From assembly GCA_017540455.1 (NCBI GenBank), contig JAFYAZ010000004.1, positions 1 to 43,892 on the forward strand: a stretch of 43,892 nucleotides of DNA, given 5' to 3'. This stretch comes from Bacilli bacterium. Its GTDB lineage: Bacteria > Bacillota_I > Bacilli_A > RFN20 > CAG-826. Positions 17,366-41,540 of this stretch are shown here, in pieces. Positions within the stretch are counted from its first letter, which is position 1, and every line of letters starts with the position of its first letter. The translations under genes were made by a program, and so were the position numbers. The notes below the pieces were generated by a model. It was not told the DNA's origin, made no database searches, and saw nothing but the letters and a program-made list of their open reading frames with translations.

Positions 17366-17718
17366 TTATTGCTTGAGTTTGGCTGAGGCGACTTTGACGT
17401 CTTCCTCATCTTTTTCAAGGGTGAGAGGCCTGCCTTGAATGAGCTTGAGGGCCTCTTCTTCGGAGTCCGCCGGAAGGGCGGTCTCACTTAGTACGACGAT
17501 CTGGTCGTCAGGTTTGACTTCCACCGCTCCATGCCACAAAGCGAAAAACTCGCTTCTGCCATGCGACGTGATTTTGCAAACGCCCGTTGGCCTAAGCTCG
17601 CCGACGACTGGGGTGTATCCCCTCATGATGCCCATAGGGCCTCTTGTGGTTGGGAGATAGACCTCGTCGCACTCGCCTTCGTAGGCGATTCCGTTTGGGG
17701 TGAGGATGAGAAGTTCCA

Positions 17719-17719
<1 letters not shown>
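17366..17719 (-). CDS. atpC: ATP synthase epsilon subunit, short form
   Basis: The central-stalk subunit of F1. The N-terminal beta-sandwich is complete (ELLILTPNGIAYEGE, GPMGIMRGYTPVVGEL, about residues 1-83). The chain has only 117 residues; usual epsilon subunits have 130-140 with two C-terminal helices that can insert and inhibit ATP hydrolysis. Here about one helix plus a charged tail remains, so inhibition is probably weak. It is the last atp gene and its start overlaps the atpD stop by one base. Confidence 0.93.
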
Positions 17720-19152
<1,433 letters not shown>

Positions 19153-20013
19153 TTATTCGTGGGCATTTGCCCCGCCCACCACTTCGGTGATTTCCTGAGT
19201 GATGGCGTTTTGTCTGGCTTTGTTGTATTCGATGTTGAGTTTCTCAAGTAACTCATCCGCGTTGTCGTTGGCGTTATCCATCGCCGTTCTTCTTGAGGCT
19301 TGTTCGCTTAGCTCGCTCTCGAGCAGGCGTCCGTAGAGCACGCTTGTGAGGTAATCAGGCATCAGCGAATGGATAAGGGTCCTAGGCTCCTCGTCGAAGA
19401 TCGGAGGGCAGAAGGATTCGTTCTTCCACTTCTTCGGGGTGATTTGGACCGGAAGGAACTGGAAGGTGAGCGGGGTGAAGGTTATTGAGTTGATGTAATG
19501 GGTGAAGATGATGCAGATGTTTTTGTACTTCCTGCTATTGAATTCATCCTTGAGTTTGAGACAGAAGGAACGGAGCTTCTCCATATCGAGATCGAGGTCC
19601 ACTTCCATAAAATCCCTGACAATATTGAGGTATTTTTCATTTCTCTCGTAGTGATGGATGGCTTTTGAACCAATCGGAACGATGTAGTCCGTAGGCTTAA
19701 TCATCGCGTCAGCGTACTTGAAGAGATTGCTGTTATAGGCACCGCATAGACCCATATTTGAGGAGATGACGATATAGAGGGTTGGGAGGTCGCCTTTGTT
19801 GAGGCAGCCATAGTGAGACATCGTCTCTTTGTCGTGGCTAAAAAGCATCGCCATGAGGTTCTGGTATTCTTCGATGTAGAAGTTGCTCTTCTCAAAGGCA
19901 TCCTTGAGACGTTTGGTTTTGACCGTGGCGATGAGTTCCATCGCCTTGGTGGTCTTCTCCGTCCCTTGGATGGCTAAGATCCTATGTTTGGTTTTGCTTA
20001 ATGAGCCAGGCAT
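19153..20013 (-). CDS. atpG: ATP synthase gamma subunit
   Basis: The central shaft of F1, 286 residues. The N-terminal helix (about 1-55; RILAIQGTEKTTKAMELIA is the usual contact block) and the C-terminal helix (RRTAMDNANDNADELLEKL, then ITQEITEVVGGANA) form the coiled coil that turns in the alpha/beta ring. The middle region (about 90-200) is more divergent than in model species. It lies two bases after the atpA stop. Confidence 0.95.
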   Translation of the reverse strand: MPGSLSKTKHRILAIQGTEKTTKAMELIATVKTKRLKDAFEKSNFYIEEYQNLMAMLFSHDKETMSHYGCLNKGDLPTLYIVISSNMGLCGAYNSNLFKYADAMIKPTDYIVPIGSKAIHHYERNEKYLNIVRDFMEVDLDLDMEKLRSFCLKLKDEFNSRKYKNICIIFTHYINSITFTPLTFQFLPVQITPKKWKNESFCPPIFDEEPRTLIHSLMPDYLTSVLYGRLLESELSEQASRRTAMDNANDNADELLEKLNIEYNKARQNAITQEITEVVGGANAHE

Positions 20014-20015
20014 CC

Positions 20016-21542
20016 TTACTTAGTCTCTCCCTTTTTGAGTTCGTAGGTTTTCTTGTATTCCTTGATGGCTTCGGCGAGTTTGTTCGTAAGTTCATCATTG
20101 AAGGCTTTCTTTTCGGTGAGTTCGTCGATGATTTCCTTATGTGAATCCTCGATGTACTGATACATCTCAGAAAGGAATGGGTTGACCTCTGGAAGAGAGA
20201 GGTCATCGAGGAACTTTCTGTTGACCGCGAAGAGTTCGATGATCTCGCGGATCATGTTCATTGGGGCCCAGTTGACTTGCTTGAGGGCTTCGGTGACGAC
20301 CGCACCATGGGTGAGGATACGCTTGGTCTCGGCGTCGAGATCACTTCCAAACTGTGAGAAGCTAAGGTTCTCACGGTAGTTGGCAAGCTCGATCTTTAAG
20401 GATGAGGCGACTTGCTTCATGGCTTTGATCTGAGCGCTGGAGCCAACACGGCTGACGGAAAGACCGGAATCGACAGCAGGACGCTGGCCGGAAGCGAAGA
20501 AGTCGCTCACTAAGAAGATCTGACCATCGGTGATGGAAATGATGTTCGTTGGGATGTAGGCGCTGATATCGCCAGCCTGGGTCTCAACGATTGGCAAAGC
20601 GGTGATGGAGCCACCGCCATAGTCTTTGGAGAGTTTGCAAGCTCTCTCTAAAAGTCTGCTATGGAGATAGAAGATGTCGCCTGGATAGGCTTCACGTCCT
20701 GGGGCTCTTCTCAAGAGAAGAGAGAGGGCGCGGTATGCGACGGCGTGTTTGCTTAAATCATCGAAAACAATGAGGACGTCCTCACCGTTTTCCATCCATT
20801 CCTCAGCCATGGCCATGCCCGCGAATGGGGCGACATATTGCTGAGGGGCTGGCTCGGAGGCGCTTGCGTTGATGACGGTGACGTAATCGAAGCAGCCTCT
20901 GGCTTTGAGTTTGGCGACGATTCCGGCGACGGTTGAGTTCTTCTGGCCGATCGCGACATAGACGCACTTAACGTTCTTGCCTTTCTGATTCACGATGGTG
21001 TCGATGGCAATGGAGGTCTTGCCAGTCTGACGGTCGCCGATGATGAGCTCACGCTGACCACGGCCGATCGGAATCATGGAATCGATGGCTTTGATGCCGG
21101 TTTCGAGAGGGGTATTGACGGATTTTCTGGTCATGACGCCAGGAGCGATTCTTTCAATTGGACGCGTTTTTGCATAGGATATTGGTCCAACTTCGTCTAA
21201 AGGAAGGCCTAAAGGAGAGACGACTCTTCCTAGTAATCCATCCCCTACTGGGACCTCAACGACCTTGTGGGTGCGTTTGACGGTATCGCCTTCTTTGATT
21301 TGCCTATCGCTTCCTAAAAGGACGGCGCCGACATCATCGAGGTTGAGGTTCATGACCATGCCATAGACGTCATTAGGGAAAAGAAGAAGCTCGCCGAGCA
21401 TGGCGTTCTTTAGACCATAGATGGTCGCGATGCCATCGCCAACAGCGATGACGGTGCCTACGTCGCTGCTCTCGACAAGGTTCTCATATCCCTTGATCTG
21501 CTCCTTGATGAGAGAGCTTATCTCACTTGGATTAAGTTTCAT
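20016..21542 (-). CDS. atpA: ATP synthase alpha subunit
   Basis: The non-catalytic nucleotide-binding subunit of F1, 508 residues. Walker [15 protein letters not shown] near residue 170 and the blocks [10 protein letters not shown] and [18 protein letters not shown] are canonical. The start [20 protein letters not shown] is family-typical, with an AGGA-type ribosome site. The standard position after atpH is kept. Confidence 0.98.
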
Positions 21543-21554
21543 ATCTTTCCTCCG

Positions 21555-22091
21555 TCAGTTTTTGAGAAGATTGCTACGCAAACGCTCAATCTTCCCAAGG
21601 ATGGTCCCGTCAAAGACTTTGTCATCCACATATACTTTCACGCCGCCGATAAGACGATGGTCGACGTGGTTTTCGAGCTCAACCTTCGAGGAGAGTCTCT
21701 CTCCGATTGATTTCTCGATTTTTTTGATTTCAGCTGCAGAGAGTTTCTCCGCCGAATAGACGATTCCTTCCTTGATGCCGCTAAACTCATTGCAAAGGTT
21801 ATTGAATGAGGAAGCGATGGCCTCGAAATGGATGATCTCATGCTTCAGCATCAAGAGTTTCAAGAAAGCCGGAATCTCTTTGTTTGCTAATCCCCCAAAG
21901 ACCTTGTCGACGAGGGCGTTAAGCGATTCCTCAGGTAACGAATATGAGGAAAGGGTTTCCAAAAGCTCAGGGTTATCCCTGAAGAGAGCAAGAACTTCCT
22001 TCATTTCCTCTTGGAAAGAAGACACCTTCTTCTTCTCTAAAGCCAGCTCATAAAGGCCAGCCGCGTATGCGTTTGCTTCCGCTCCCCTCAT
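21555..22091 (-). CDS. atpH: ATP synthase delta subunit
   Basis: The peripheral-stalk subunit connecting the b subunits to the top of F1. The 178-residue chain is helical at the N-terminus (AYAAGLYELALEKKKVSSF). The conserved C-terminal block reads DHRLIGGVKVYVDDKVFDGTI at about 146-166, matching the family's (L)IGG(V/I) motif region. It starts nine bases after the atpF stop. Confidence 0.95.
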   Translation of the reverse strand: MRGAEANAYAAGLYELALEKKKVSSFQEEMKEVLALFRDNPELLETLSSYSLPEESLNALVDKVFGGLANKEIPAFLKLLMLKHEIIHFEAIASSFNNLCNEFSGIKEGIVYSAEKLSAAEIKKIEKSIGERLSSKVELENHVDHRLIGGVKVYVDDKVFDGTILGKIERLRSNLLKN

Positions 22092-22100
22092 TTATTCTCC

Positions 22101-22649
22101 TTATTCGTCCACGCTGTCGACGAATTCATCGACGAGTTTGGCGTTATCCTCTTTGTTCACTTCACGGCCAAGGACGGCTTTCGAGGCATCAAGGGCGACA
22201 TTGACGATTTCTTCTCTGATGGCGCGACGTGATTTCTCTTCGGCCTGAGCGATGGCTTCATCGGCCGCTCTTTGGCGGGCCTCGGCTTGCTCATTGGCGT
22301 TTTTGATGATGCTTTCGGCGCTAACTTCGGCGTCGCTTTTGGCTTTGGCGATGATATCCCCTGCCTCTTTGCGGGCCTTGGAAATCATGACATCGCTTTC
22401 GGCGACTTTCTTTTCATACATGGCTTTGGAAGTCTCGCTGTCGCGAATGTTCTTCTCCACGTAGTTCTTTCTGGCGTCGAGGTATTTCTTCACCGGCTTA
22501 TAGGCGATGAAATAAAGGAACACGAAAAGGACGATTAACGCGAGGAGGTTGATGAGCAAGCTCCAAAAGTTAGGGAAGAGTTTGTTCAAAAAGTCCTCAG
22601 CGGTAAAGGGAGGCGCAGAATCGTATACTTTGATTCTTAGTCCGTTCAT
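22101..22649 (-). CDS. atpF: ATP synthase b subunit
   Basis: The peripheral-stalk subunit of Fo, 182 residues. One N-terminal membrane helix (about 27-52, NFWSLLINLLALIVLFVFLY) is followed by YKPVKKYLDAR and a long charged Ala/Glu/Lys-rich coiled coil that dimerises. There is one b gene, so a homodimer is expected. It lies between atpE and atpH. Confidence 0.95.
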   Translation of the reverse strand: MNGLRIKVYDSAPPFTAEDFLNKLFPNFWSLLINLLALIVLFVFLYFIAYKPVKKYLDARKNYVEKNIRDSETSKAMYEKKVAESDVMISKARKEAGDIIAKAKSDAEVSAESIIKNANEQAEARQRAADEAIAQAEEKSRRAIREEIVNVALDASKAVLGREVNKEDNAKLVDEFVDSVDE

Positions 22650-22666: not shown

Positions 22667-22921
22667 TTAGATAGCGGCGTTAAGAGCTGGAAGACCCATC
22701 AAGAAGATGATGAGAATGGCGACGACGAGAGCGTAGATGGCGGTTGACTCATCAAGAGCAACGGCGACGATCATGTTCGAACGAAGTTTGTCAGCCATTT
22801 CTGGGTTTCTGACCATACCGTCGATGGAGTGGCAGCAGATTAAGCCCTCACCGATGGCGGAGAGGCAGCCCATGCCAACAGCGATGGCGGCTGCGATTGC
22901 ACATAAACCAGCATTGATCAT
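22667..22921 (-). CDS. atpE: ATP synthase c subunit with a two-carboxylate ion site
   Basis: An 84-residue hairpin of two membrane helices that forms the rotor ring of Fo. The polar loop RNPE lies at 38-41. On the outer helix the ion site reads E58-S59-T60 with Tyr63, the same ESTxxY pattern as the Na+-binding c subunit of Ilyobacter tartaricus (E65, S66, Y70). On the inner helix the position matching its Gln32 is Glu25 (IGEGL). A Glu/Glu pair plus Ser and Tyr resembles the two-carboxylate Na+ rotor described for Fusobacterium nucleatum. Na+ coupling is inferred from these residues and not proven. Confidence 0.93.
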   Translation of the reverse strand: MINAGLCAIAAAIAVGMGCLSAIGEGLICCHSIDGMVRNPEMADKLRSNMIVAVALDESTAIYALVVAILIIFLMGLPALNAAI

Positions 22922-22955
22922 AATTTTTCCTCCTTATGAATTGTTGGTATTGACC

Positions 22956-23855
22956 TTATCCTTCGATCACTAACGGCCTATTCTCGCTAAGAGGAAGAGC
23001 CTCTTCCTTCTTTTCAGGCGAGGCGGCAGGCATTTCTTGCGAAATCCAAATGGCCGAAAGCGATGAGAAAACCAGGGTTTGGATGAACCCCGAGAATAAG
23101 GAGAAGTAAGAATTGAGGACGCCGACAGGGAATGGGGCGAGGAAGACGCTCGTCCAGCCTGGGTTGTTCCAGAAAGATGAGGTACCGATGGTGCCGACCA
23201 CTCCAAAGGCGTCGAAGATTCCGCTGGATGCGGAGCTAAGAGCCCATTGGACCAAGCCGACAAGGATGGTACCCGATAAGCAGTTGCCGAATAGACGCAT
23301 CGTGGTTGAGACGATTGGCGCCCACATGGTGATGAGGTTGACAGGGAGGAAGACGAAGATTGGCTCCACATAGCGATGGAAGTAACCAAGCTTCGAATAC
23401 TTGAGTCCCTGGAATTGGATGATCGCGAACATGATGATGGCAAGGCAAAGAGGGCAGGCCAGCCAATCAACAAGGCTTGGAAGTCCGAAGAGGGAAATGT
23501 TGAAGCCGATGAATAGATAGGCGAAAAGGGTCCAGAAATAGCCACCCCAACTGACATGGGTTTCGCCCATGTTCGAGGAAGCGAAGTTGTTGCACATGTT
23601 GTAATAGAGCTCCGCGAAGAACATGATGCCCTTCGGTTTTTGGAGATACTCTTTGCGCTTAAGGGCGATTCTTGCCCTGATGCCCACCACAATGCCGATG
23701 ACGGCAAGGATGGCCATAACGAAAAGCGAGCTCACCAATGGTGCGTCTATGGAAGCCCAGCCATCCCAATGGAACATCGATTCCACTTTGTCGCTAAAAG
23801 AATGGGATGTTGCGCTGGTGACTCTTTCTAAGGTTAGGACGCTTAACGAATTCAC
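22956..23855 (-). CDS. atpB: ATP synthase a subunit
   Basis: The membrane stator of Fo that holds the ion half-channels, 299 residues with about six helices. The essential arginine is in TTMRLFGNCLSGTILVG (about residues 186-202). The C-terminal helix is TLVFSSLSAIWISQE, followed by an extra soluble tail of roughly 25 residues (PAASPEKKEEALPL) not usual in the family. The start overlaps the upstream atpI-like stop by four bases. Confidence 0.95.
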   Translation of the reverse strand: MNSLSVLTLERVTSATSHSFSDKVESMFHWDGWASIDAPLVSSLFVMAILAVIGIVVGIRARIALKRKEYLQKPKGIMFFAELYYNMCNNFASSNMGETHVSWGGYFWTLFAYLFIGFNISLFGLPSLVDWLACPLCLAIIMFAIIQFQGLKYSKLGYFHRYVEPIFVFLPVNLITMWAPIVSTTMRLFGNCLSGTILVGLVQWALSSASSGIFDAFGVVGTIGTSSFWNNPGWTSVFLAPFPVGVLNSYFSLFSGFIQTLVFSSLSAIWISQEMPAASPEKKEEALPLSENRPLVIEG

Positions 23856-24283
23856 CTGACGGCCCTCTTGGACTTAAGCCCGCGGATAACAAGGAGGACC
23901 TGGATTGGGAGAAGCCCGACGAAGGTCATCCAGAAATTGAACATATCAAAACCACCGAACCAATCGGTCCAGGTGCAAATGGCGCCGATAACGAGAACGG
24001 CGATATAGATGAGGAATCTCAAAGCGACGTAGAGAATGATCTTGGTTGGCCTTGGGTTTGGCTCCTCTTCCGTTGGGAGAAGGGCTTCGCTCATCTTGAT
24101 GATGGTGAAGAAGGAAAGGATCTCGGCGAGAGTGCCTAAAAGCCAGCCCATCGGATAGGAATAGCCTTTGTCCTCGTAGAAGAAGAAAAATGGGCAAAGT
24201 CCGATGAAGCCAACTACGCCGATGACTATGAGCCAGAAGAGGGTTCTCTGGTGTTCGTTTAATTTGAGATATTTTTCTACCAT
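23852..24283 (-). CDS. AtpI-like membrane protein at the head of the atp operon
   Basis: A 143-residue protein with four membrane helices (about 15-36, 44-66, 82-103 and 112-134). It occupies the atpI position before atpB. AtpI helps assembly of the c ring or Mg2+ handling in some species. Sequence similarity to AtpI is weak by eye, so the call rests mainly on position and topology. It is the first gene of the operon and overlaps atpB by four bases. Confidence 0.65.
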   Translation of the reverse strand: MVEKYLKLNEHQRTLFWLIVIGVVGFIGLCPFFFFYEDKGYSYPMGWLLGTLAEILSFFTIIKMSEALLPTEEEPNPRPTKIILYVALRFLIYIAVLVIGAICTWTDWFGGFDMFNFWMTFVGLLPIQVLLVIRGLKSKRAVR

Positions 24284-34081: not shown

Positions 34082-34683
34082 AATTGTCTTCTCCTTTTCA
34101 CCAAGGATTCTTTTTGGTTTTCTATTTCGATGTGGTTAGCATGCTTCTCTACTAGAGGCTTAACTATCTTAGCATCGCCAGAGACCTTTAGAGAAATTTT
34201 CTCTAAAAATGAGGCGTCGCTAATCGTGACTCCTAAGCGTTCGCATTCTTTTTCGAAGGAGGAATAGTCGCTATACCCCATGGAGAGGGTTGCTTCATAT
34301 CCTTCAACGAGGTCAGCCATGTCGGTCTCTTCCACCGCTTTCAGGCAAACATCGCGGTATGTTCTCGTGAGTCTTCCTAAGCCGAGCTTGGTTCCGCCGA
34401 AATAACGGACGACGACAAGAAGGACATGATCGACTTCTCTGCCTCTAAGGATTTCAAGAAGAGGAAGACCTGTGCTTCTAGCAGGCTCGCCTTCGTCGCT
34501 GCACCTTTCGAAAGGAAGGAGTCTTGCAGCGTAAGGGTAATGCGTCGCTTTCGGATACTCTTCCCTCACTTTAGCCAAAAGGCCTCCGATTTCCTTTTCG
34601 TCGTCGAAAGGAATCACGAGGCCGATGAAGCGAGATCCGAGGATCACGAATTCATGTATGTGTTTGGCGAAAGGATAGTTCAT
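34078..34683 (-). CDS. yigZ: YigZ/IMPACT family protein
   Basis: A 201-residue member of the UPF0029/IMPACT family. The N-terminal domain carries the signature SDEGEPARSTGLPLLEIL and the strongly conserved VVVRYFGGTKLGLGRL. The C-terminal half is a small alpha/beta domain. Eukaryotic IMPACT acts on translation control; the bacterial role is unclear. It overlaps pepP at its 3' end, and its start overlaps the giant gene stop by one base (TAATG). Confidence 0.93.
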   Translation of the reverse strand: MNYPFAKHIHEFVILGSRFIGLVIPFDDEKEIGGLLAKVREEYPKATHYPYAARLLPFERCSDEGEPARSTGLPLLEILRGREVDHVLLVVVRYFGGTKLGLGRLTRTYRDVCLKAVEETDMADLVEGYEATLSMGYSDYSSFEKECERLGVTISDASFLEKISLKVSGDAKIVKPLVEKHANHIEIENQKESLVKRRRQL

Positions 34684-37600
34684 TAGGCGCCTAAGCTCGT
34701 TGCGGCGTGCTTGAAGTAACCGGAAGCGCCAAATGGGGTTGGGTAGCTGGATGGCTCTGTGTAGAAGTGAGCGGCATCACTGGTACGGAGACACTCGTAG
34801 ATGGAACCTTCGTAGAAGGCCATGACGACATCGGCATAGGTCGAGGAAGCCGTGTAGCTTGAGAAGCCGTTAAGGATAGCGGCACAAGTCGGCTTGTTGG
34901 AGATCGAGAAGCTCTTGATGTTTTTCATGAGAACGATGAGCTTTTCTCTCATGAGTTCGATGAAGCCTTCGTAGTCAGCTGCGGATGGACGATAGACGCT
35001 GGTGAAGTTATGACCGCCGTTGAAGCGAGCGTTGCCAATCGCGAATTCTCTCATATCTTCGTAGAAGACTCTTCCGAAGCCGCTCTTGAACTTGCCTTCG
35101 AATGTGTTCCATTCGCAAGAAGCGCTAAGAGTGATGTACTGGGTGAGGGTAGTTCCGCTGATTGGGGCAGCTGGGACGCTGTCGATGCCATTGGAGAGCA
35201 TGACCATGCCCGCGGCTTTTCCGTTCTCATAGACGCCGTAGAAGTAAGCGACATCCATGACATTGGCATCAAGCCAATCAGTGACGTCAGCGATTTCAGC
35301 TTCGGTGAGGCAGTTCTGGTTTGTGCCAACGAAGATCTCGTAGAGGTCTTTGTAGACATTGGTCATATCCTCAGCGGTCTCGTCGTAGTTCGGGAGGTAC
35401 TTCGCGAGGTTGACGGTTGTTCCGCTGTTGTTGAACTTGAGGAGGTTAGAGAGGACGACGTCGCCACCGGTGTAAACACCGCTAGCGGCTTCTTTGTTAT
35501 CCGCGTCATAGACCTTGGTGTAGATGGAGTCGCCGTTCTTAGCGAAGTTGGCAAGAGCCGTAAGGTTATCGCCAGCGGCGAAGAGGGTGGCGATGGCCGT
35601 TGGGTTGGCGCCAAGATCCATGTAAGTGCCAGAGTCCTCATCGTAAAGTCTATCGACCAAATCGATGAAGGACTTGATGGCGCCCTTATGGGTGTTTGGA
35701 GCGGTGAGAGTATCAAGTCTCTCTTTGCTCATGCCGATCATGGCGTTCGTGTCGAAGCTGAGTTCAACCTTGGTCATGTTGGCGGCGCAAGTGACGCTTA
35801 AGGAATCGCCAAGGACGATGTCGGTGATGTCGTATTGCTTAACGCCTGCGCTCACATCGGTTGGGGCAACGATATGCGGCATGTTCGCCTTGAGGTAAGA
35901 AACCTCTGGAGCAACAGAGCCAGAATAGGTGATCTTAAGTGATTTCACAGGGGTTTTGACAGGGATTTCGAAGGTTGTGGCATTTGGAGCGTAGACAACT
36001 TTCGCAACCGAGTAATCGGTGAAATGGAGCTTGTTGGTAAGGAAGTCGGTAGCCTGGATTGGGATGATCTCACGAATCATATCGACTTCGTTGATGGCGT
36101 AAAGAAGCTCGCCAATCTCTTCTGGGGTGAGGTTCTCAAGGGTGTCGGTATCGACGCTGACGCTTGAGCCAGAGATGATGCCAAGGTCATAGGCCTTGCA
36201 AAGGAGACCGGCATCCTGAGTGTCGTTGATGATCAAATCAGCGAGCTCTTCTTCCCACATATCGTCTGGGTAAGAGGAAACCTTAGCCAAGAGCTTGGCT
36301 CCGCTCGTAGCGTATGTGTTGTCGATGGCGTCGTTGTAGCAAAGATCAGCGAGAGTTGAATCGTTGAAGACCTTGTACATGGCTTGTTTGAAGACGGTGA
36401 GGTCGGTCTTTGTGACGGCGATGTTGTCATCATCTTCAAGGGTGTAGCATGGTCCATCTTTGGAGAAGATATAGGACTCATTGAGGCTATCAAGGATGTT
36501 CCTGACCTTGGTGATGTTGGCTTTGCTCGAGAAGTCGGTGAGAGCTCCTGGGTCGTCGCTAATGAGACTGATAGTCTCAGTAAGGCCTAAGATCTCTTCG
36601 TTGTCGTAGTGCCTGTTATAATCTTCAGAGGCAAATCTAACCATTGAAGCAGGTTTGACGTAAGTGCCACTGCCCTCGTCATAACTTATGGCGTATGAGT
36701 AACAGTAATATGGGTTCGAACGGGTGAGCTTAACGTCAGCAAGAGTTACCTCGCCGAGGGCTTTGGTGATCGCATTTGGAACGGCGTCATAAGTCCAATC
36801 GCAATCGTTGAGGTAGACAAGCAAGTTGCTTAGATCGCCCGCACTCAAATCGGAAACTGGAGTGCTAGCAAGGTTATCGAGAAGCGTTGAGCTGGAAGTG
36901 AAGTTGACAAGGAGTGTCTTGATCGAGTTTTTGCCATCGCCATTGATGTTCTCGGTTGGGAGATTGTTCGCGTTGGTATTGATCAAAGCAACCTCTGGAT
37001 AATACTGGTTGGCAAGATACTTGGCTTTGCCAGCAGCATCATGGTAACTAGCAGAGAAAGCGTCATCTTTTGGAGAATTGGCGTCGTACATGAAGCCTTC
37101 AACCTTTTCGTTGGTGGTGAGGATCTTGACCATGAACTGCTGGAAGACGGTGTCCGCCGAACCTTCCTTCTTGCTATTGAAGATGTGGCTCTTCGCGAAG
37201 GTGGCGAGGAGGTCGGTGATGTCATCGATTTTCTCGGTTTGGATATGGGCTAAGTCGTTGATGTCGATGCCATCCGAAAGGGCACTGCCATAATGGATGA
37301 CAGAGGCAAGGTTGTAGCACTCATCTTCGCCATAGGCAACAGGAGCGTACTTATCGGTCGTGCTGCCTGGGACTAACGCGCTACCGGCATAGTAGAGGTT
37401 CGCATCATTGAGATTGAGACCAGAGCTGGCAAGAGAGGTGTTGACCGTCGAAAGAGCGGAATTAAGTTTCTCTGGGAAGCCAGGGTATAAGAGGCAGGAA
37501 TCATTGATATCAATGAAGAGGTCGGCAAGGATGTCTTCGCCGAATCTCGCTTCCTGGAAGTAAGCGTTGAAGTCGAATGAGGAATCAAGGTTGATGCCCA

Positions 37601-40600
37601 TGACGTGGAGGTCGTCGACGATTTCGACGAAGCGGTCGATTTCGCCATCCCATCCGCCTCTAGCGGCAACCAAACCTTTGAGGGTTGGATAAAGGGCTTC
37701 GGCTTTCTCCTCGCTTCCATACCAGCTGGTCTGCTTAAGGACGAAGACCATCTGCTCATCGAAAGCGCTGTACTCAATGTGAGCGGTGTCCTTCTGGTAA
37801 TCAGATAGGCCATTGAAGACCTGGCTGTCGGCAAGGGTCTTAAGAAGAGGAGCGATGAGGTGATTGGCATCGAGGTTCGAAATATCCTCGAAGGCGTGGG
37901 TGTCGATTGCGCCGCCAGCGCCAAGGAGACCGCTGACTGGGTCAGTGACGATATCAAGGATATCGGCAATCGAATCAGCGACTTCTAAACGCTCAGCGTC
38001 GTTGCAGTTATAGGCATACATGATGTTCGTGTTCTTGAATGTGTCGACTGAAGTCGAAAGGATATCGACGACGACCTTGAGAACTGCTGGGACACCGGTC
38101 TTTCCAAAGAGAACGGAAGAAGACATGTCGTGAAGGAGCGCGCGGAAGTATTCGACTTTGAATTTGCTAAGGTCGGCGGTATCGCCGTCTTCCATGAGGT
38201 TGAATGCGCCACTCGAAGCGAGGTTCCTGATGATTCTTCCGAAGAGTTCGCCTTCGTGAGCGAATAAGGCCTGCTTGGCTTGAACTGCGGCCAGGGAAGC
38301 TTCGTTCTCTAAGGCGTGGGCGGTAACGCGGGCCTTGAAATCGCTATAGTCTTCGCTTTCGGTTCCTGGGGCCGCCACAACTTGATATTTGACACCGTCA
38401 TAATCTTCGATGAGGTTGGTGAAATAAGTTCCCATTTTGCCTGCGCCTTTGAAGGCTTCGATGAGCTTCGAGGCGATGTAGTTAGGGAAGTTGTAATTAT
38501 ACGTGCCGTTCGCATTCGTTTTGACAAAGAGCTGGGAATTGGCAAGGTAATCGAACATGGATTCCATCATCTCTGGGTCGATCGACTCAAGATCCATGTT
38601 GGAAAGGTCGCCGAACTGAGCGGCGTATTTCGTCATCGTATCAAGGGCGCGTCCCTCAGCGGTCCAATCGGTGATGTCCTTGAAGGAAAGGGCAACGGTT
38701 TCGCCGCCGTCATTGACGTAAGTGAAGAGGTCAACGCTTCCGATAGCTTTATCGATCACGCTTCCAAGGACGGAAGTAAGGAGTTCGCTGCCATCGACTT
38801 TCGAGAAGAGTTCTTCGAAGTTGATCTCGGACATTGAATCAAGGGAGATGCTCTGAAGCGAGCCAAGGAGTCCCTTATCGCAGATATATTGGATGAGGTC
38901 GACGAAGCTCGAGACTTCGCCATTGGCGTCGAAGCCGTCATCGCAGATGATGCTTTCGAGGGTGGCATCAAGGTCCGTTACATCAAGCTCTAATGATGCG
39001 AAGATGGTCTTGAAGAGGCCGTAGAAGTTGTAATTCTTCTTTCCACCGACTTCTGGGTTGAGAATCTTGTTATCGGCAAAGCCGGCAAGGAGTTTGACTA
39101 GCTGTTTCTCATGGTTTGGAGTCTCAAGCGAACACATGTGCGAGAAGGTTTTCTCCATGACGGACATGTTGGTTCCGTTGACTTGCATGGCATAAGCAAA
39201 GCCAATGACGTCTTGGCAATCGGCAAGGATGTCGATGAGTTTGGCAAACTCGGATCCGAGGATGCTGTTGCCAGCGTTATCTTTTGGGGCGGTATCAAGG
39301 GTTAGATCATCGCCGAAGAGGCTCTTAAGAGCGCTATTATCACCAGAGAGGAAACCGGACAGGGCGGCTGGGAGGACTTTGGTGAAGACCTTCGAGTCGT
39401 CAAGGTTCCTGACACTGTTGGCAAGAGCGTGGAGTAGTCCATCCTTGGCGCCAAGGAATTTGCTACCGTCGCTAGGATCGAAGTATAAACCAGGCATCTT
39501 ATCGAAATTCTCGATAAGCTCTTTGCCGTCTTCTGATTCAAGGAGCGGAGTGAGGACATTGAACATGGCCTTGATTTCCGTCTTGATGGCGGTCTTCTTG
39601 TCGTCCATTGTCTCTTTGCTCTTTAGGTCATTGGAGAGATCGCTCAAATCGACAGCGTCGGCATCGGATAGGTTAAAGGCCTCGCTCATGCTCGATTCCA
39701 AGATCTTAAGGAAGGTTGGGATGGCGTTGGCAAGGAGGGTTGAATCGAACAAGCAGGTGTCGTCAGCGGATGCGCCTTCGGCTTCCTTGCCGTCGATCCA
39801 GTGTTCCATCTCGTCTTTGTTCTCGAGAACGACTGGAATAAGTTCTTTGAACATGTCCCCGGCTTGGTTAGATCCGCTGCTTGAAGGAGCGCTTCCACTT
39901 TCGCCTTCCGGAGTGGACATTTCCTTTACAGAATCGATAACGATTTTGATTAGTTGTGGGTCGATGGTGACAAGATGATAGAAAGAATCAAAAATCACCT
40001 GCAATTCGTGGCCGAAATCAATATCTTTGACCGCTTGTGGGATAGCGACGACGTATCCCCTTTCGCTTCTTTGGATATCTTCGGGGGTTAATTCTGGGAG
40101 GAGGTCTTTCACGCCGATTTTGATCGTGCCGTCATCTGGTGAAAGAGCTTCTTCTTCGTATTCCCTGACAGCTTGGACATAAAGGGCTGATCTGATGATG
40201 TCGTCGAAAACCTTCTTCTCACTGTTCGAGAAGATGTTGAAGAAGTCATCAAAGATGTCGCAGTATTCTGGTTTGAAGAGCTCGGCAATATCGTCTGATT
40301 CGCTGACAAGGTTGCCTTCCTCGTCGACGGCGTCGGAGATGATTCCGCTATTGGCGACGCTTTCCCAAAGGCTAGCGAGATCGTCAAAGGTCTCAGCTGG
40401 GTCATAGTGTTCGAAATCGATGCCTTCTTCAGTCATCACATATTGAGCGATATCCGGAAGGTTGAGAGCGAACTGGAGACCGAATGGGAGAATGGTTTGG
40501 ATGAGCTCAGAGCGTCCGATGCAGCGGATGGCGGTTGGAATGACATCTGAGGTCAATAAAGTCGCAAAGTTGAAGTGCTCTAAATTCTCTTCGGTGAAGA

Positions 40601-41540
40601 TACCGGCGTTAAGAGCGGTACCGGCAAGTTCGACGACGTTCTTAAGTTCGCGGAGAACGCTGATTTTCTTTTCGCCGGTTCCATCGACGTCAACGGTCGT
40701 GATGAAGTCGATCAAAGCGGCGTCGAAGGTAAGACCGGTCTCTGGATCGGTGTACCAGCCGAAGAATGTTTTGGAGAGGAGAGAATTCTCATAGGTGTCC
40801 ACCACATCTGTGAGGATGCCATAGAATTCGTCATTGGCTCTCATCGCGGCGTGGTTCTCGCCCTTTGGAATCTTGCTATAAGTCTTTGAGACGACGTTGA
40901 CGAGGGAAGTAAGAGGAGAGATGAACATCGCCAAGATGGCGGCGCTGACGAGGACTTCCTCGATGGCGGAGATGATTTTGAGTTTCTTGACCTTTTCGCC
41001 ATCTTCGTTTCTGGAGCTAAGGAAGTGCTTGAAGAGAAGATGCCAAAGGAGGGTGCAAAGAAGACCGCCGACGATCCAGATAACGAGAGCTTCGATGACT
41101 AAGAGAATGACGCAGACAAAGGATAAGATAAGGGCAGTCGCCAAACCTAATAAGGTTGTTGGGTCGGCTTCGATGCCGCTTGCCTGGAGAGCCTGAGTAA
41201 TGAGATTGACGCCGGTTTCCCTGATGGTGGTGATTGGGGCGGTAAGTTGAATTTCACCACCACCCATATTTAATGGGAACGATATTTCAGTTTTGCCGAT
41301 CCATCCGGTAACGCCTAAACCGACAAGGTCGACATCCGCCAAACCGTTGCCGATGAATCTAAGCGATAAGATGGCTCCGACGATAAGGAGACCCATGAAC
41401 ACTAAGCGGTAAGTGCCATATGCCCATCCGCGTCCAAGCCCGCGTAAAAAAGCAATGACTAAAATTGCTAAAACACCGATGAACACGCCTAATAAAACCA
41501 TGTTCATCACATTGATGACCGATTCTATGTTGAAATCCAT
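34683..41540 (-). CDS. Giant CvpA-like membrane-anchored protein with a huge extracytoplasmic region
   Basis: At 2285 residues this is the largest gene here, and no known protein is recognised over its length. The N-terminus has four hydrophobic stretches near 11-32, 43-63, 130-169 and 189-215, the CvpA layout. Basic loops (FLRGLGRGWAYGTYR; GEKVKKLK) lie on the predicted inside, which puts residues from about 216 to the end outside the cell. That region is acidic, mostly helical, has no C-terminal anchor, and has a Ser/Gly/Pro-rich linker (SAPSSSGSNQAG, near 545). A short LxxSxxF motif recurs six times between 713 and 1692. The ATG has GGAGG upstream. It is followed without gap by yigZ and pepP. 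A surface scaffold, adhesin or envelope-stress role is only a guess. Confidence 0.85.
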   Translation of the reverse strand: MDFNIESVINVMNMVLLGVFIGVLAILVIAFLRGLGRGWAYGTYRLVFMGLLIVGAILSLRFIGNGLADVDLVGLGVTGWIGKTEISFPLNMGGGEIQLTAPITTIRETGVNLITQALQASGIEADPTTLLGLATALILSFVCVILLVIEALVIWIVGGLLCTLLWHLLFKHFLSSRNEDGEKVKKLKIISAIEEVLVSAAILAMFISPLTSLVNVVSKTYSKIPKGENHAAMRANDEFYGILTDVVDTYENSLLSKTFFGWYTDPETGLTFDAALIDFITTVDVDGTGEKKISVLRELKNVVELAGTALNAGIFTEENLEHFNFATLLTSDVIPTAIRCIGRSELIQTILPFGLQFALNLPDIAQYVMTEEGIDFEHYDPAETFDDLASLWESVANSGIISDAVDEEGNLVSESDDIAELFKPEYCDIFDDFFNIFSNSEKKVFDDIIRSALYVQAVREYEEEALSPDDGTIKIGVKDLLPELTPEDIQRSERGYVVAIPQAVKDIDFGHELQVIFDSFYHLVTIDPQLIKIVIDSVKEMSTPEGESGSAPSSSGSNQAGDMFKELIPVVLENKDEMEHWIDGKEAEGASADDTCLFDSTLLANAIPTFLKILESSMSEAFNLSDADAVDLSDLSNDLKSKETMDDKKTAIKTEIKAMFNVLTPLLESEDGKELIENFDKMPGLYFDPSDGSKFLGAKDGLLHALANSVRNLDDSKVFTKVLPAALSGFLSGDNSALKSLFGDDLTLDTAPKDNAGNSILGSEFAKLIDILADCQDVIGFAYAMQVNGTNMSVMEKTFSHMCSLETPNHEKQLVKLLAGFADNKILNPEVGGKKNYNFYGLFKTIFASLELDVTDLDATLESIICDDGFDANGEVSSFVDLIQYICDKGLLGSLQSISLDSMSEINFEELFSKVDGSELLTSVLGSVIDKAIGSVDLFTYVNDGGETVALSFKDITDWTAEGRALDTMTKYAAQFGDLSNMDLESIDPEMMESMFDYLANSQLFVKTNANGTYNYNFPNYIASKLIEAFKGAGKMGTYFTNLIEDYDGVKYQVVAAPGTESEDYSDFKARVTAHALENEASLAAVQAKQALFAHEGELFGRIIRNLASSGAFNLMEDGDTADLSKFKVEYFRALLHDMSSSVLFGKTGVPAVLKVVVDILSTSVDTFKNTNIMYAYNCNDAERLEVADSIADILDIVTDPVSGLLGAGGAIDTHAFEDISNLDANHLIAPLLKTLADSQVFNGLSDYQKDTAHIEYSAFDEQMVFVLKQTSWYGSEEKAEALYPTLKGLVAARGGWDGEIDRFVEIVDDLHVMGINLDSSFDFNAYFQEARFGEDILADLFIDINDSCLLYPGFPEKLNSALSTVNTSLASSGLNLNDANLYYAGSALVPGSTTDKYAPVAYGEDECYNLASVIHYGSALSDGIDINDLAHIQTEKIDDITDLLATFAKSHIFNSKKEGSADTVFQQFMVKILTTNEKVEGFMYDANSPKDDAFSASYHDAAGKAKYLANQYYPEVALINTNANNLPTENINGDGKNSIKTLLVNFTSSSTLLDNLASTPVSDLSAGDLSNLLVYLNDCDWTYDAVPNAITKALGEVTLADVKLTRSNPYYCYSYAISYDEGSGTYVKPASMVRFASEDYNRHYDNEEILGLTETISLISDDPGALTDFSSKANITKVRNILDSLNESYIFSKDGPCYTLEDDDNIAVTKTDLTVFKQAMYKVFNDSTLADLCYNDAIDNTYATSGAKLLAKVSSYPDDMWEEELADLIINDTQDAGLLCKAYDLGIISGSSVSVDTDTLENLTPEEIGELLYAINEVDMIREIIPIQATDFLTNKLHFTDYSVAKVVYAPNATTFEIPVKTPVKSLKITYSGSVAPEVSYLKANMPHIVAPTDVSAGVKQYDITDIVLGDSLSVTCAANMTKVELSFDTNAMIGMSKERLDTLTAPNTHKGAIKSFIDLVDRLYDEDSGTYMDLGANPTAIATLFAAGDNLTALANFAKNGDSIYTKVYDADNKEAASGVYTGGDVVLSNLLKFNNSGTTVNLAKYLPNYDETAEDMTNVYKDLYEIFVGTNQNCLTEAEIADVTDWLDANVMDVAYFYGVYENGKAAGMVMLSNGIDSVPAAPISGTTLTQYITLSASCEWNTFEGKFKSGFGRVFYEDMREFAIGNARFNGGHNFTSVYRPSAADYEGFIELMREKLIVLMKNIKSFSISNKPTCAAILNGFSSYTASSTYADVVMAFYEGSIYECLRTSDAAHFYTEPSSYPTPFGASGYFKHAATSLGA

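What the first reader, a model, noticed from the sequence alone, without database searches (positions are those of the whole stretch)
22667..22921. ATP synthase c subunit with Glu25/Glu58 two-carboxylate, Na+-type site
E58-S59-T60-Tyr63 matches the Na+ site of Ilyobacter (E65, S66, Y70), and the equivalent of its Gln32 is Glu25. A Glu-Glu pair is the arrangement reported for the Fusobacterium nucleatum Na+ rotor. In a Bacilli-type organism this suggests Na+ bioenergetics.
Basis: partly seen in the sequence, partly recalled or inferred. Interest (0 to 1): 0.7.

Follow-up and report, generated by a model that had tools for sequence, protein, structure and literature searches.

The report
Sodium-type ATP synthase rotor ring
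An uncultured gut/rumen-type Bacilli bacterium carries an ATP synthase whose rotor has the full set of residues for gripping sodium ions, as in Fusobacterium, and its genome also carries two candidate sodium pumps, so it probably runs at least partly on a sodium current; this is the normal state for its whole bacterial class.

Summary
It encodes the 84-residue c subunit of a complete F-type ATP synthase operon. Aligned without gaps to the Fusobacterium nucleatum Na+ ring (3zk1), E25/E58/S59/T60/Y63 equal E32/E65/S66/T67/Y70, so every known side-chain ligand of the Na+ site is present.

It is not unusual for its lineage: 84 of 84 F-type c subunits in the order have the Glu-Glu site, and 47 of 47 sampled from the rest of the class have a Gln/Glu Na+-type site. 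A Glu pair alone does not prove Na+ coupling, because H+ rings with two carboxylates are known.

The motif ALDE(S/T)T(A/G)IY occurs only in c subunits of this lineage. In the DEST clade the a subunit has lost its half-channel Asp. Whether this matters functionally is unknown. Verdict: new member of a known kind; interest modest.

The parts
22667..22921 (-). atpE, F-type ATP synthase c subunit, 84 aa
   Evidence: TIGR01260 above cut-off; PF00137; aligns at constant offset to 3zk1 and 1yce
22847..22849 (-). codon of Glu25 (= Glu32 of F. nucleatum, Gln32 of I. tartaricus)
   Evidence: offset-7 alignment; invariant in 84/84 of the order
22733..22750 (-). codons of Glu58-Ser59-Thr60-Ala61-Ile62-Tyr63 (= E65-S66-T67-G-I-Y70)
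   Evidence: E58 and Y63 invariant, 59 always S/T in the order
22751..22753 (-). codon of Asp57 (Ala64 in the F. nucleatum and I. tartaricus rings), a third acid next to the site
   Evidence: 32 of 33 in the genus; ALDE[ST]T[AG]IY found only in c subunits of this lineage; 0 of 47 in the rest of the class sample
22929..22935 (-). Shine-Dalgarno sequence AAGGAGG of atpE
   Evidence: sequence
22956..23855 (-). atpB, a subunit; essential Arg kept in MRLFGN; no acid at the two half-channel positions (T in CLSGT; S in YFSLFSGFIQ)
22101..22649 (-). atpF, b subunit
   Evidence: TIGR01144 above cut-off
21555..22091 (-). atpH, delta subunit
   Evidence: TIGR01145 above cut-off
20016..21542 (-). atpA, alpha subunit
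   Evidence: TIGR00962 above cut-off
19153..20013 (-). atpG, gamma subunit
   Evidence: TIGR01146 above cut-off
17719..19134 (-). atpD, beta subunit
   Evidence: TIGR01039 above cut-off
17366..17719 (-). atpC, probable epsilon subunit, 117 aa
   Evidence: position and sequence; no family search run on it
23852..24283 (-). first gene of the operon, membrane protein, weak match to MG406 family (AtpI-like place)
   Evidence: NF033688, 25.6 bits, below its cut-off of 40

Best explanation
This is the rotor (c) subunit of an ordinary bacterial F-type ATP synthase whose ion site binds Na+ in the two-carboxylate manner of Fusobacterium nucleatum. At each interface between subunits, E58 (deprotonated), E25 (permanently protonated, acting like a Gln), S59 and the backbone carbonyl of residue 56 hold the Na+. 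T60 holds a water ligand, and Y63 locks E58 closed. The a-subunit Arg opens the site during rotation. At normal Na+ and pH the ring carries Na+ rather than H+. The Na+ gradient comes at least partly from the oxaloacetate decarboxylase, and possibly from Rnf, so the enzyme can make ATP. In relatives that lack both pumps it probably runs as an ATP-driven Na+ exporter. Shown: the sequence, the alignment, the conservation, the operons. Inferred: Na+ binding, Na+ use in the cell, direction, and the role of Asp57.
For: All side-chain ligands match 3zk1 at constant offset (ligand list in PMC3692424). S21/A22 match the Pro/Ser28-Gly/Ala29 water pocket, and T60 meets the polar-at-67 rule that separates predicted Na+ from H+ rings in PMC2359735. 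E25, E58, Y63 and S/T59 are conserved in 84/84 rings of the order. The profile hits Na+ rings before H+ rings: 4bem, 3zk1 and 1yce rank above cyanobacterial, chloroplast and Bacillus PS3 rings. The genome has a Na+ decarboxylase beta subunit (TIGR01109, 457 vs 190.6 bits) aligned over 300 residues to Salmonella OadB 6iva with Asp203, Ser382 and Asn412 present, beside oadA, a gamma-like gene, a biotin carrier and PEP carboxykinase. No V-ATPase c/K, cytochrome bd, NhaC-type antiporter, Mrp/Nuo or H-PPase family was found. 19 of 23 genomes of the genus at least 90% complete have Rnf, Oad or both.
Against: No biochemistry exists for this organism or its relatives. Two-carboxylate H+ rings exist, and Methanosarcina acetivorans uses both ions (PMC3692424). 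Asp57 next to the site is absent from the Na+ rings aligned, so the site is not identical to any tested one. Rnf here may not pump Na+ (Lys in RnfD). Four well-completed genomes of the genus have the same ring and neither Rnf nor Oad, so ring and pumps are not strictly coupled. The Gly motif of helix 1 is degenerate (G18, L20, A22, G24), so c11 is not assured.
Confidence: 0.8

Rival explanations
1. Two-carboxylate H+ ring: E25 is protonated, E58 carries H+ in the cell, and the polar residues are an ancestral relic.
For: H+-driven enzymes with two carboxylates are named in PMC3692424, and the paper states that even Na+ rings are thermodynamically H+ selective. All RnfD of the genus that I read have Lys at the proposed Na+ site, so an H+-pumping Rnf cannot be excluded.
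Against: S/T59 and Y63 are invariant in 84/84 of the order and in 47/47 outside it, which a relic would not be. T60 is polar, whereas PMC2359735 finds aliphatic residues there in predicted H+ rings. A Na+ decarboxylase is present.
Confidence: 0.1
2. Mixed ring: Na+ and H+ are both carried in the cell, as reported for Methanosarcina acetivorans, with the share set by pH and Na+ in the gut.
For: Two-carboxylate precedent in PMC3692424; the extra Asp57 could shift either affinity.
Against: The ligand set equals that of F. nucleatum, for which the paper finds Na+ only; nothing in the sequence points specifically to mixing.
Confidence: 0.1

Closest known systems
Fusobacterium nucleatum F-type Na+ c11 ring (PDB 3zk1/3zk2, PMC3692424)
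   Same: Every Na+-site side chain (E32/E65/S66/T67/Y70) at a constant offset of 7
   Different: Asp57 instead of Ala64; Leu56 instead of Val63 (backbone ligand only); less Gly-rich helix 1; ring size unknown
Ilyobacter tartaricus F-type Na+ c11 ring (PDB 1yce/2wgm)
   Same: E65/S66/T67/Y70 equivalents
   Different: Gln32 is Glu25 here; Asp57 instead of Ala64
Two-carboxylate H+ rings (S. pneumoniae, M. tuberculosis; named in PMC3692424)
   Same: Acid on both helices
   Different: From general knowledge these lack the Ser/Thr-Thr pair after the main Glu; not aligned to them residue by residue here
c subunits of the rest of this class
   Same: Na+-type E-(S/T)...Y site in 47 of 47
   Different: Mostly Gln at position 25; none has Asp at position 57

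Membership tests
F-type ATP synthase c subunit | two-helix hairpin of the ATP-synt_C family with a helix-2 carboxylate, in an F1Fo operon | tested here: met
   PF00137 E 2.4e-15, TIGR01260 above cut-off, all F1Fo neighbours identified except epsilon, which rests on position and sequence
N-type (alternate) F1Fo ATPase | match to the alternate-F1Fo models (TIGR03322, TIGR03306, TIGR03305) above cut-off | tested here: not met
   32.5 vs 130.85; 34.5 vs 302.1; 588.7 vs 752 bits
Na+-binding F-type c ring | Gln/Glu32, Glu65, Ser/Thr66, polar 67, Tyr70 | tested here: met
   E25, E58, S59, T60, Y63
Two-carboxylate (F. nucleatum type) ring | Glu at position 32 as well as 65 | tested here: met
   E25 and E58; invariant in the order
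Na+-coupled ATP synthase | Na+ protects from DCCD, stimulates ATPase, is transported | not testable with these tools
   needs purified enzyme or vesicles
c11 ring with Gly motif in helix 1 | GxGxGxG in helix 1; 11 subunits | tested here: not met
   motif degenerate (G18, L20, A22, G24; sequence); stoichiometry itself not testable here
Na+-translocating oxaloacetate decarboxylase (partner pump) | OadA, OadB with Asp203/Ser382/Asn412, OadG, biotin carrier | tested here: met
   OadG and the biotin carrier are under their curated cut-offs
Rnf complex (partner pump) | RnfC, D, G, E, A, B with a 4Fe-4S input domain in RnfB | tested here: inconclusive
   C, A and E above cut-off, D below, G by position only; RnfB is 108 aa without the C-terminal cluster domain

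The most novel reading that the evidence does not exclude
In one clade of gut Bacilli the ion path of the ATP synthase has been rebuilt. The rotor has a third acid, Asp57, packed behind the two-Glu Na+ site, and the stator a subunit has lost the Asp its relatives keep in the half-channel helix. The enzyme would then have a Na+ site and access channel with different affinity or selectivity from any ring studied.
Probability: 0.25. Interest if true: 0.55.

Novelty: new member of a known kind. Interest (0 to 1): 0.3.

Why it matters
It supports predicted Na+ bioenergetics for an uncultured rumen/gut Bacilli order. PMC7301438 reads Rnf in related Tenericutes as a proton pump hindered by a single membrane; a Na+ ring and a Na+ decarboxylase offer a simpler account for this lineage, although this Rnf's own coupling ion is open. 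It also gives a natural series of rings (Asp, Val, Thr, Ala or Cys at one position beside the same Na+ site) and an a-subunit change in one clade, in which the effect of a third acid on ion selectivity could be tested.

Tried and rejected
Chance or misread frame: rejected. N-type ATPase: rejected by curated cut-offs. A second ion-pumping rotary ATPase in the genome: no other PF00137 match. Glu pair as a rarity: rejected, universal in the order. 'Ring coupled to Rnf/Oad': not strict, four genomes of the genus lack both. Asp57 paired with a partner acid or base in helix 1: none found; the strongest association is with Ile28 (44 of 44 D57 rings), which fits packing but is confounded by kinship. 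Asp57 directly replacing the a-subunit Asp: not supported, because most rings with D57 and T59 keep the a-subunit Asp. Seven pattern hits outside the lineage are not c subunits. A paper search for a third carboxylate in c rings gave nothing relevant. An automatic read-out of the a-subunit residue misplaced a few rows; redone with a stricter pattern. One row (L012) was misread as Gln at position 25 there; the alignment shows Glu.

Full report
What is there. The span 22667-22921 encodes, on the minus strand, the 84-residue c subunit MINAGLCAIAAAIAVGMGCLSAIGEGLICCHSIDGMVRNPEMADKLRSNMIVAVALDESTAIYALVVAILIIFLMGLPALNAAI. It has a good ribosome-binding site and lies in an operon with the order (weak MG406/AtpI-like)-a-c-b-delta-alpha-gamma-beta-epsilon, 24283 down to 17366. 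NCBIfam recognises c, b, delta, alpha, gamma and beta above their general cut-offs. The a subunit matches only below cut-off but aligns with solved a subunits around the essential Arg. The alternate (N-type) models score far below theirs. The genome (1.16 Mb, 48 contigs, 92% complete) has no other PF00137 protein.

The site. Both single-sequence and profile comparisons align the protein to the Na+ rings of F. nucleatum (3zk1) and I. tartaricus (1yce) with a constant offset of 7. Hence E25=E32, L56=V63, D57=A64, E58=E65, S59=S66, T60=T67, Y63=Y70. PMC3692424 gives the Na+ ligands as Glu32, Glu65, Ser66, the carbonyl of 63 and a water held by Thr67 and the carbonyl of 64, with Tyr70 locking Glu65. 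All side chains are present. S21 and A22 also fit the Pro/Ser28-Gly/Ala29 water pocket, and T60 the polar-residue rule, of PMC2359735. With the profile, the top PDB hits are the Acetobacterium ring (4bem; organism from memory) and the F. nucleatum and I. tartaricus rings, ahead of the cyanobacterial, chloroplast and Bacillus PS3 rings.

How general it is. In 84 F-type c subunits from 97 relatives, positions 25, 58 and 63 are E, E and Y without exception. Position 59 is S in the genus and mainly T elsewhere. In 47 c subunits from other orders of the class, position 25 is Q (mostly) or E, position 59 is S/T, and E58 and Y63 are invariant. The Na+-type site is therefore the rule of the class, and the Glu pair the rule of the order. 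An identical c protein occurs in a water-buffalo rumen MAG and a one-residue variant in a MAG of the RUG series labelled Erysipelotrichaceae (L156 and L164).

Sodium pumps. On contig C43 of the genome: PEP carboxykinase, oadA, an oadG-like gene, a biotin carrier, oadB and a BioY-BirA-like fusion. OadB aligns over 300 residues to Salmonella OadB 6iva. The residues that PMC7274780 shows to bind Na+ (Asp203 in GGADGPT, Ser382 in GVSAVPMAAR, Asn412 in MGPNV, placed by counting in the alignment) are all present. On contig C16: rnfC, D, G, E, A, B and an ApbE-like gene. The Rnf has two oddities. RnfD has Lys in GETCK, at the place of A. vinelandii Glu219, where C. tetanomorphum has Ala; this argues against a standard Na+ site in RnfD, although PMC12174285 also describes a Na+ path through RnfA-E. 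And RnfB is only 108 residues. So the decarboxylase is the firmer evidence for Na+ bioenergetics. No PF03030, PF00361, PF03553 or PF01654 protein was found in the genome (the draft is 92% complete, so absence is not proof). Of 23 genomes of the genus at least 90% complete (this one included), 19 have PF03116 (Rnf), PF03977 (Oad) or both. G004, G006, G011 and G029 have neither, yet keep the ring. There the enzyme probably works as an ATPase that expels Na+ (inference).

Asp57 lies directly before the main Glu, where the F. nucleatum and I. tartaricus rings have Ala and Bacillus PS3 has Val. It is present in 32 of 33 rings of the genus, in 12 of 51 in the rest of the order, and in 0 of 47 from the rest of the class. 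A scan of 84,980 species genomes for ALDE(S/T)T(A/G)IY found 59 stretches. 52 are c subunits, all in MAGs labelled Bacilli, Bacillales, Erysipelotrichaceae, Mollicutes, Candidatus Alloenteromonas, Candidatus Scatoplasma or uncultured Firmicutes or bacteria; the other 7 are unrelated frames. Other sequence contexts of an Asp there were not scanned. By helical geometry (100 degrees a residue) position 57 sits with the small residues 53, 61, 64 and 68, the face that should pack on helix 1 rather than on lipid, so Asp57 should be buried near the site; this is inference. In the a subunit the essential Arg is kept. The residue seven before the helix-5 Gln (His245 of E. coli by my own recollection) is Asp in nearly all T59 enzymes, but Ser, Thr, Gly, Ala or Asn in every DEST enzyme read. 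On an a-subunit tree the enzymes without that Asp form one branch of 34 (SH-aLRT 100), apart from two Asn cases far away, while Asp57 needs at least 7 changes. The two changes therefore overlap in one clade but are not a simple swap, and one branch is one event.

Mechanism. Most likely (0.8): Na+ in the F. nucleatum manner, with E25 permanently protonated and E58 the carrier. Rivals: H+ ring with relic ligands (0.1), mixed ring (0.1).

Novelty. The ring is a new member of a known kind, in a lineage where it is universal. The third acid with the altered a subunit is a possible variant; I give 0.25 that it changes function.

Noticed in passing
L110:2654-2980 (own genome, contig C16); L113:7984-8301: RnfB is only 105-108 aa: one membrane helix and one 4Fe-4S motif, without the C-terminal cluster domain that receives electrons from ferredoxin in described Rnf complexes (PMC12174285). 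RnfB-sized open frames of 102-139 aa are the rule across the order, so this is a lineage trait, not a broken gene.
   Followed up: partly
L110:5150-6295 (RnfD): RnfD of this genus has Lys where the A. vinelandii RnfD has Glu219 and C. tetanomorphum and A. woodii have Ala; two other families of the order have Thr. The ion carried is open.
   Followed up: partly
window 22956-23855 and relatives: The a subunit of the DEST clade lacks an acid at both usual half-channel positions (T and S here); relatives keep Asp at the second.
   Followed up: partly
L111:419-1690 (own genome, contig C43): One ORF of 423 aa joins a membrane part that looks like the biotin transporter BioY to a biotin ligase (BirA), next to the biotin-dependent Na+ decarboxylase. 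The BioY part is by eye only.
   Followed up: no
window 34683-41540 (-): A 2285-aa ORF with a membrane-anchored start and no assigned function; not searched.
   Followed up: no
G004, G006, G011, G029: Genomes of the same genus, 93-97% complete, that keep the Na+-type ring but show neither Rnf nor Oad nor membrane pyrophosphatase nor Mrp/Nuo-type subunits.
   Followed up: no
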